From Candidatus Jettenia caeni (GTDB taxonomy: Bacteria > Planctomycetota > Brocadiia > Brocadiales > Brocadiaceae): 64,000 nt of DNA. Shown one piece after another: positions 19,899 to 53,862 of the stretch. Location: assembly GCA_000296795.1 (NCBI GenBank), contig BAFH01000004.1:310001-374000 (forward strand), read 5' to 3'. The position numbers and the translations under genes are program-made. Each line of letters starts with the position of its first letter. Position 1 is the first letter of the stretch. Below the pieces are notes generated by a model. It was not told the origin of the DNA and did not search any database. It worked only from the letters and a program-made list of their open reading frames with translations.

Positions 19899-20484
19899 TG
19901 TATATTATAGGATGTTTTACGTTTATTTGACACGGATTAAAGCATTTCCAAAATCAACAGGTATTTATATTCGAATTTTTACAGGGTATGTTCAAATTAT
20001 GTAGGTGCAAATACTAACAGACATCTAACCCTTTGTCAATAAGGGAAAAAGCATAGTTGTTGTAATATCATAAAAATAGGCGCCTGTAATTGCACATAAA
20101 CCGATTTTTGGATTTGCATAATCTACGGCGGTTCTCCCTGTCATTCCCGAACGTCTTTATCGGGAATCCAGCATAGGGAAGCAAACAGCAAAGGAAACTG
20201 GATTCCTACTCCCCTTTTTCATGAGAACAAGTTTTGTGAGGAAAAGCTCCCGTTTCCACAAGAACAGGCTGTGTGGGGATGGCAGGAAAAGCAGATGGGG
20301 ACGATACCCATAGGCAGGTTCAGGTTTATAATCTTAACCCTCAATTTGGAATATTTCTCTCTGTGTTTAGCCATGAAAACGCGATGAGCTATCGACCATG
20401 CAAAATATAGGGGTTGTAGAGTAAAACACTGGCGTAGTGGCAACAGGCTGAGGTTTGTGTTCCCCGTTTCTCTCCGTTTTCTCT
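19899..20484. other. Gene-poor spacer upstream of the oxidoreductase gene
   Basis: About 590 bases with no convincing gene. It should hold the promoter of the bi-domain oxidoreductase operon (minus strand), but I see no clear -35/-10 pair. It contains the ATTCCC...GGGAAT repeat at 20140 and a 74-codon minus-strand frame at 20219-20443 that lacks any recognisable family and is probably chance. Confidence 0.5.
20140..20171. repeat. Short dispersed palindrome (GTCATTCCCG...CGGGAATCCAG)
   Basis: ATTCCCGA and TCGGGAAT form an inverted repeat around a short centre. The unit ends in CCAG, and CTGGATTCC occurs again some 20 bases later. Units of this design (ATTCCC-N-GGGAAT) are known as dispersed small repeats in other bacteria, for example the neisserial dRS3 type. 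Identity with those families is not claimed. Confidence 0.6.
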
Positions 20485-20931
20485 GAGAGTGTCACATGAT
20501 CACAACCATACCCTATTTCCAGCATCTTCTCGTCAAACCGTACGTGAGGTTTTCCCTCATACGGCTTTCCTGCTCTCTTCTCAACAAGGCATTATCCACC
20601 GTTGGAGAAGTTCCTGCCTTATCTCTTCCAGAAATTCCTCACGTCCTTCTTTCTCTCTGTCCTTCTCCCTTTTTGCCAGTTCCTGGAAAAGAATCTTGCC
20701 TTCACCTCACATTGACAGGCTCGGCCAGTGGTTCTCATTTGTTACGAGGCTACTTCTCCGTTCACATTCGTTACAACCCGGAGAGTTGCTCACCCGCCTT
20801 AGAGCGGCCTTTGTCGATGGGCTTCAGAAGGTAACGTTTCCCTCACCCCCTGCCATCCTGGCTACATGGCTTCCGGCTTTTACCATGAAAGAACTTTCAC
20901 CCGTTAGTAAGCACTACCCTTCGCTGGGCAC
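20485..20931 (-). ncRNA. Group II intron RNA without a reverse-transcriptase gene
   Basis: Reading the minus strand, 20569-20533 folds as a group II domain V: AAGCCGT pairs with ACGGTTT, including the diagnostic G-U pair in the AGC triad. A two-base bulge follows, then TGAGG paired with CCTCA around a GAAAA loop. Upstream on the minus strand, from about 20931 (GTGCCCAGCG), come purine-rich domain I-like segments, including GGGTGAAAGT and GTAACGAATGTGAACGGAG. Domain VI should lie between 20532 and about 20490; the exact 3' end is not resolved. The whole element is about 450 nt, far too short for an intron-encoded protein. Only a 30-odd-codon purine-rich frame ending at 20581 occupies the domain IV position. 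It would need a protein supplied in trans, or is a degenerate copy. Confidence 0.7.
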
Positions 20932-21016
20932 GCCAATGCGCAAAATTGAACCTGCAAGGAATTTCGGGGAAATGGGGCTATAGTATTCAAAGGATGAAAC
21001 CGGACATACCGCATGC

Positions 21017-21150
21017 AATCCCGAAGGGATGACATCTCAACGCAGATATTCCATGTCACCCCTTCGGGGTTGAAGGGTTTTTTCCTGCTTTTTCTATAAT
21101 CATGACATCCCTACGGGATTAGGTAGAGACGCAACATCTTGTGTCCCTAC
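21017..21150. repeat. Cluster of small palindromic repeats
   Basis: Several units follow one another: AATCCCGAAGGGATGACAT at 21017, CACCCCTTCGGGGTTG near 21056, CATGACATCCCTACGGGATT at 21101 and GTAGAGACGCAA...TTGTGTCCCTAC at 21123-21150. The first and third are related and in opposite orientation. These look like REP-type units in a gene-poor stretch beside the group II intron. The remaining bases to 21472 hold no gene I can support. Confidence 0.65.
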
Positions 21151-21472
21151 AACCGACAAACTCAACACCTTGCGTTTCTACAATTGCAACATCGTGTATC
21201 TTTGTGTTTAATGTTGGGAAATTTCAATTCCGTAGGACGACCATTTCGGGTTGCCTAGCAAGGCTAAACAGACTGTCTGAGAATACTTGCACACGACAAA
21301 TCTTATACTATATGTTGACAAAATATTAGCATGATAACAATATTGAGTATGGCATTTGTGAGTCGATTGAATTCTCGGACAGCCTGTAAAGCCTCGCCCT
21401 ACATCGACTCCGTGAGTGTTTCCATGGTAAAGATTGATCATTATAGGTGCACCTTAATTCAACCTACTCGTC

Positions 21473-53584: not shown

Positions 53585-53862
53585 GGCCGTGCTAGATGGG
53601 GAGCTAGCGGTACCCTGTAACCTGCAACCCGCTACAGCAGGATCGATCGCTTTTTTGAGGGCTCACAGACTGTTAGCTTTATCAATGTAAGGGGTGTTGA
53701 AGGCTGGATCTCATGCAATAAGAGACGCTGCGAACCTGGTCAGATGCGGAAGCAAGCAGCCATAAGCATTTGTCCTTATGTGCCGTGAGCAAGTCTGGCC
53801 TGAGCTTACTGCATTGGTAAACTAATGGAAACGGGAACAAAAAAAAGTGCACGGCCTTTTTT
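53585..53862 (+). ncRNA. ffs: Signal recognition particle RNA, long form with Alu domain
   Basis: The ends GGCCGTGC and GCACGGCC pair and are followed by six T, so the terminal stem also acts as terminator. The 5' part (GCTAGATGGGGAGCTAGCGG, then CCCTGTAACCTGC) matches the Alu domain of Bacillus-type SRP RNA. GGTCAGATGCGGAAGCAAGC carries the GGAA tetraloop and Ffh-binding bulges of helix 8. The length of about 270 nt makes it the long type rather than the 4.5S type. It lies between two tRNA-Ser genes and dnaX. Confidence 0.93.

What the first reader, a model, noticed from the sequence alone, without database searches (positions are those of the whole stretch)
20485..20931. Compact group II intron RNA with no intron-encoded protein
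The minus strand folds into a convincing domain V (AAGCCGT/ACGGTTT with the G-U in the catalytic triad, two-base bulge, capped stem), preceded by domain I-like sequence, but the whole element is only about 450 nt. RT-less group II introns are uncommon in bacteria and depend on a protein supplied in trans. The purine-rich frame in the domain IV position could be the remnant of the lost protein gene.
Basis: partly seen in the sequence, partly recalled or inferred. Interest (0 to 1): 0.7.

Follow-up and report, generated by a model that had tools for sequence, protein, structure and literature searches.

The report
Broken, protein-less group II intron relic
A 518-base remnant of a self-splicing, self-copying group II intron sits inside a hairpin repeat of an anammox bacterium; it has lost not only its protein gene but also half of domain I and all of domains II and III, so it is probably a dead passenger rather than a working compact intron.

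Summary
The element is real and group II intron-derived. It occupies 20416-20933 (minus strand, 518 nt). The ends are fixed by an empty orthologous site in a sister species. Rfam finds the 5' half of domain I (107 bits) and domains V-VI (45.8 bits). The genome holds one intact 2,003-nt relative with a 480-aa RT/maturase, a second compact copy at C3:621199-621681, and other deleted copies.

Against a consensus built from 16 relatives, the copy lacks the 3' half of domain I, all of domains II and III, and the 5' strand of domain IV. Models of the lost parts score 114-138 and 52-64 bits in relatives but only noise here.

Both therefore descend from one deleted element that was copied recently. 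The best account is a probably splicing-dead relic spread by recombination between intron copies. Trans-retrohoming of the broken RNA is not excluded. Intact ORF-less introns do exist in a relative, with at least five copies in G004.

The parts
20416..20933 (-). whole inserted element (518 nt), 5' GCGUGCCC ... CUCUAC 3'
   Evidence: exact comparison with the empty orthologous site in G017; the same boundary at a second empty site in G016
20661..20933 (-). 5' part: first 273 nt of domain I (homologous to positions 1-273 of the 2,003-nt RT-bearing intron)
   Evidence: RF02003 107.3 bits; blastn to full-length copy stops at position 273
20709..20714 (-). EBS1 (CAAUGU) in a hairpin loop of domain I
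   Evidence: hairpin in the family consensus fold; pairs with IBS1
20934..20939 (-). IBS1 (GCAUUG), last six bases of the 5' exon
   Evidence: 5 Watson-Crick + 1 G-U pairs with EBS1; EBS1 and IBS1 covary across family copies
20599..20663 (-). 65-nt remnant of the RT gene (..KDREKEGREEFLEEIRQELLQ.., cf. IEP EDIEREGLEGFLEGIRQELLE)
   Evidence: 83% identical to the ORF of G006 copy L166
20416..20600 (-). 3' part: domain IV 3' strand, domain V, domain VI (homologous to 1820-2003 of the full-length intron, 95%)
   Evidence: blastn
20535..20568 (-). domain V
   Evidence: RF00029; recovered in MFE fold
20419..20531 (-). domain VI: 13-bp stem GAG-AAGAUGCUGG / CCAGUGUUUU-A-CUC with candidate branch A at 20422 and a long distal insertion
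   Evidence: direct reading of sequence; stem recovered in fold; RF00029
20934..20959 (-). 5' half of the palindromic target (CCTTGCAGGTTCAATTTTGCGCATTG)
   Evidence: aligned to intact palindrome at the empty site
20313..20415 (-). 3' part of the dispersed target repeat (AACCCCTATATTTTGC..CCTGAACC)
   Evidence: repeat with many copies in the genus

Best explanation
The element is a non-autonomous, internally deleted relic of a 2-kb RT-encoding group II intron. A parent intron inserted by RNA-guided retrohoming (EBS1-IBS1 pairing) into the 3' arm of a palindromic hairpin repeat. One copy then lost two internal stretches: domain I 3' half through domain III and the start of the RT gene, and most of the RT gene. 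That deleted sequence came to occupy two loci in this lineage, C3:621 and the window site. The more ordinary route is recombination or gene conversion between two intron copies. A less likely route is trans-mobilisation of the deleted RNA by the surviving RT. With half of domain I and domains II and III missing it is unlikely to splice, and it probably does nothing now. Shown: boundaries, missing domains, RT remnant, shared junctions, empty sites. Inferred: route of copying and loss of splicing. The stated confidence is for 'deletion relic, not a complete intron'; the preferred copying route (gene conversion) alone is only about 0.5.
For: Domain I 5' half and domains V-VI by Rfam. Full-length relative C3:642533-644535 with intact 480-aa RT/maturase. 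Homology to it stops at 273, resumes for an ORF fragment (725-760) and again at about 1815-1820. Family consensus places D1 at 6-325, D2 at 329-412 and D3 at 414-438, with 44 D1 pairs bridging position 273. The D2-D3 model scores 114-138 bits in essentially intact relatives and at best 5.8 bits in the window region. The D1 3'-strand model scores 52-64 bits in intact relatives and 4.2 bits here. Two compact copies share both junctions and differ at 9 of 482 sites; the C3:621 copy differs from its own G017 ortholog at 10 of 274. The window site is empty in G017. The C3:621 site is empty in G016 and carries a differently deleted copy in G017.
Against: Domains V and VI and EBS1 are well preserved. 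The mutated EBS1 (CAAUGU, not the ancestral CAAUUU) fits the unusual IBS1 at the window site (GCAUUG) better than it fits the common AAAUUG sites. That would follow if the EBS1-mutated, perhaps already deleted, element inserted itself there. Splicing was not measured.
Confidence: 0.85

Rival explanations
1. The deleted RNA is still mobile: the surviving 480-aa RT, perhaps with intact intron RNA supplying the missing domains in trans, splices and reverse-splices it, and it retrohomed from C3:621 into the window site.
For: Same internal junctions at two unrelated loci; window site empty in G017; precise insertion; flanks not converted (3' exon 4 differences in 103 from the empty ortholog); EBS1-IBS1 fit at the new site; one intact RT in the genome.
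Against: Half of domain I, the domain I basal stem partner, D2 and D3 are missing. From established ribozyme knowledge these are needed for folding, exon binding and efficient catalysis. Only one new copy is seen. Gene conversion between two full-length copies explains the same pattern.
Confidence: 0.2
2. It is a complete compact ORF-less group II intron that needs only an RT in trans.
For: Domain V and VI intact, Rfam D1 hit, RT-bearing relative in the genome; ORF-less introns with intact domains exist in relatives.
Against: D1 3' half, D2 and D3 tested and absent.
Confidence: 0.05
3. Both compact copies suffered the same deletion independently.
For: Deletion derivatives with other junctions are common in the family.
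Against: Two separate junctions are identical in both copies, and they share derived changes not in the G017 ortholog, e.g. EBS1 CAATGT.
Confidence: 0.03

Closest known systems
ORF-less TeI3 introns of Thermosynechococcus elongatus (PMC2882425)
   Same: RT gene deleted with coding remnants kept, same break-points in all copies, RT-bearing relatives in the same genome
   Different: TeI3 deletions lie within domain IV and the ribozyme stays intact and mobile; here domain I 3' half, II and III are lost as well, and only two copies exist
Degenerate organellar group II introns and Euglena group III introns (reviewed in PMC4424553)
   Same: loss of ribozyme domains
   Different: those are spliced with the help of other factors and many sit in essential genes; this copy lies between genes in a repeat, with no sign of splicing function
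Bacterial class C group II introns (target terminator hairpins and attC, PMC4424553)
   Same: insertion guided by IBS1 next to a DNA hairpin motif
   Different: here the site is inside the 3' arm of a palindrome; the class of the RT was not determined

Membership tests
group II intron (catalytic) | domain V | tested here: met
   RF00029 45.8 bits
group II intron (catalytic) | domain VI with bulged branch A | tested here: met
   13-bp stem, candidate A 20422
group II intron (catalytic) | complete domain I | tested here: not met
   5' half only; 3'-strand model finds 52-64 bits in intact relatives and noise here
group II intron (catalytic) | domains II and III | tested here: not met
   covariance model R1: 114-138 bits in essentially intact relatives, best 5.8 bits here
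group II intron (catalytic) | EBS1-IBS1 pairing | tested here: met
   5 WC + 1 GU; covaries among copies
group II intron (catalytic) | 5' GUGYG and 3' AY ends | tested here: inconclusive
   3' end AC met; empty sites put the 5' end at GCGUG, shared by all aligned family copies except L050 with GUGUG
group II intron (catalytic) | splicing | not testable with these tools
   no RNA data
ORF-less group II intron mobilised in trans (TeI3 type) | intact ribozyme with deletion limited to domain IV | tested here: not met
ORF-less group II intron mobilised in trans (TeI3 type) | RT of a related intron present in the genome | tested here: met
   intact 480-aa RT at C3:642910-644349; subfamily only about 84% identical in the 5' RNA part
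ORF-less group II intron mobilised in trans (TeI3 type) | several copies with the same deletion at different sites | tested here: met
   two copies

The most novel reading that the evidence does not exclude
A bacterial group II intron RNA lacking half of domain I and all of domains II and III was still spliced and retrohomed, with protein and perhaps the missing RNA domains supplied in trans by an intact relative; this would be a natural bacterial analogue of fragmented, snRNA-like group II introns.
Probability: 0.2. Interest if true: 0.8.

Novelty: new member of a known kind. Interest (0 to 1): 0.33.

Why it matters
It shows that a domain V hit plus an Rfam 'D1-D4' hit does not prove an intact ORF-less intron: the Rfam model covers only 138 positions in the 5' half of domain I here. 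Surveys that count such pairs would call this element a functional ORF-less intron. The surrounding family is more informative than the window copy. It offers dated empty sites, EBS1-IBS1 covariation, insertion into palindromic repeats, real multi-copy ORF-less introns in a relative (G004), and an unusual RT motif (SADD). Whether a domain-less derivative can move in trans is directly testable.

Tried and rejected
'Complete compact ribozyme' was rejected by the D2-D3 and D1-3' models. Independent identical deletion was rejected because two junctions and derived bases are shared. Intron start at GTGCCC (20931) was rejected because empty sites show two more inserted bases, and a relative has GTGTGCCC in register. 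Movement of repeat plus intron as one unit was rejected because the repeat is already present at the empty site. No paper on these anammox introns or on SADD was found in the library searches. A global pair count overstates the pairs kept in the window copy because gaps scatter in the alignment; the model searches are the cleaner test. The RT class was not determined.

Full report
Observation. On the minus strand, Rfam finds group-II-D1D4-4 at 20906-20766 (107.3 bits, E 5e-23) and Intron_gpII (domains V-VI) at 20569-20416 (45.8 bits, above its gathering score). No RT-sized ORF overlaps.

Exact extent. In G017, a single-contig genome of the same genus, the orthologous intergenic region has an uninterrupted palindromic repeat ..CCTTGCGGGTTCAATTTTGTAAATTG|AACCCCTATATTTTGC... 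The window has ..CCTTGCAGGTTCAATTTTGCGCATTG + [GCGTGCCC....CTCTAC] + AACCCCTATATTTTGC... The insert is therefore 20933-20416, 518 nt. A second empty site, in G016 at the locus of the other compact copy, gives the same boundary. The 5' end is GCGUG rather than GUGYG; all aligned family members share it except L050, which has GUGUG in the same register.

Relatives. The same genome holds a 2,003-nt full-length intron with an intact 480-aa RT/maturase at C3:642533-644535 (NCBIfam TIGR04416, 376 bits; Pfam RVT_1 and GIIM). It also holds a second compact copy at C3:621199-621681 (about 98% identical; last 36 nt of domain VI lost) and internally deleted copies at C4:283k, C4:67k and C4:1147k with other break-points. 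Family members occur in other Brocadiaceae (24-25 of 33 family genomes match by DNA or protein, the protein matches including distant RTs) and, at about 73-83% protein identity, in Nitrospirae and Syntrophaceae MAGs. G031, in the same family as the window genome, has a contig of the same length and content as a record titled Ca. Brocadiaceae, so the window genome belongs to the anammox family; Kuenenia is my guess, not tested.

What is missing. A consensus fold of 16 relatives gives a classical layout: D1 6-325 closed by CCCAG/CUGGG, EBS1 hairpin around 212-228, D2 329-412, D3 414-438, D4 from about 440. The window copy matches positions 1-273, then a 65-nt ORF fragment, then positions 1820-2003. 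It therefore lacks the 3' half of domain I (44 pairs bridge position 273), D2, D3 and the D4 5' strand. A covariance model of D2-D3 scores 114-138 bits in essentially intact relatives, including the ORF-less G004 copies, but at best 5.8 bits (E 0.1) in window 20300-21050 with filters off. A profile of the D1 3' strand scores 52-64 bits in intact relatives, 33 in the partly deleted G017 copy, and 4.2 here.

History. The C3:621 site is empty in G016 and occupied in G017 and in this genome, but the G017 copy has a different deletion that removes domain V. The window site is empty in G017. The two compact copies here share both internal junctions and derived bases such as EBS1 CAATGT. They differ at 9/482 sites, whereas C3:621 and its G017 ortholog differ at 10/274. 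So one deleted element was copied recently within this lineage. The window 3' exon stays close to the empty ortholog (4/103), so the flank was not visibly converted.

Targeting. Introns of this family in this genus insert in the centre of dispersed palindromic repeats, in either orientation. EBS1 and IBS1 covary: CAATTT/AAATTG, CAATAG/CTATTG, CACAAA/TTTGTG, TCAATT/AATTGA, and CAATGT/GCATTG in the window; some copies pair less well, 4-5 of 6. This supports RNA-guided insertion of the parent.

Mechanism. The parent inserted by retrohoming. The deleted form then reached two loci, either by gene conversion between intron copies (ordinary; preferred, about 0.5) or by trans-retrohoming of a broken RNA (about 0.2). 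Splicing by the present copy is unlikely, since domain I organises folding and exon binding and D3 assists catalysis (established knowledge, not tested here).

Compared with the known. ORF-less introns are rare in bacteria and nearly always share a genome with a related RT (PMC4424553). In T. elongatus, 17 ORF-less copies share one deletion confined to domain IV, and the ORF-less introns are described as actively mobile (PMC2882425). The G004 copies (five or more, one shared ORF deletion 583|1815, D1-D3 and D5 intact) resemble that case; the window copy does not. In G004, a one-contig genome, no close RT was found, only RTs at 34-37% identity.

Verdict. Real, intron-derived, RT-less, but a broken relic: a new member of a known kind of degenerate element. 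Interest is modest for the window copy and higher for its family.

Noticed in passing
   Followed up: partly
L031:1411-2853 and relatives L046-L051, L055, L166, L167: The RT of this intron family has SADD in place of the YADD active-site motif, conserved across Brocadiaceae, Nitrospirae and Syntrophaceae copies, while more distant RTs have YADD.
   Followed up: partly
window 20313-20415 and 20934-20959; G017:C1:1712113-1712246: Dispersed repeat of about 130 bp with a palindrome at each end, roughly 10-40 matches per genome in the genus, serves as intron target in both orientations.
   Followed up: partly
window 21258-21404 and 20994-21268: Two further dispersed repeats, the first matching on both strands (palindromic), with dozens of copies in sister genomes.
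   Followed up: no
L031:1034-1038 and family copies: Family-wide 5' intron end GCGUG instead of GUGYG, fixed by two empty sites.
   Followed up: yes
L168 (G020): An intron copy with an insertion of about 25 nt in the domain V loop.
   Followed up: no
window 53587-53854: Large bacterial SRP RNA, 171 bits.
   Followed up: no
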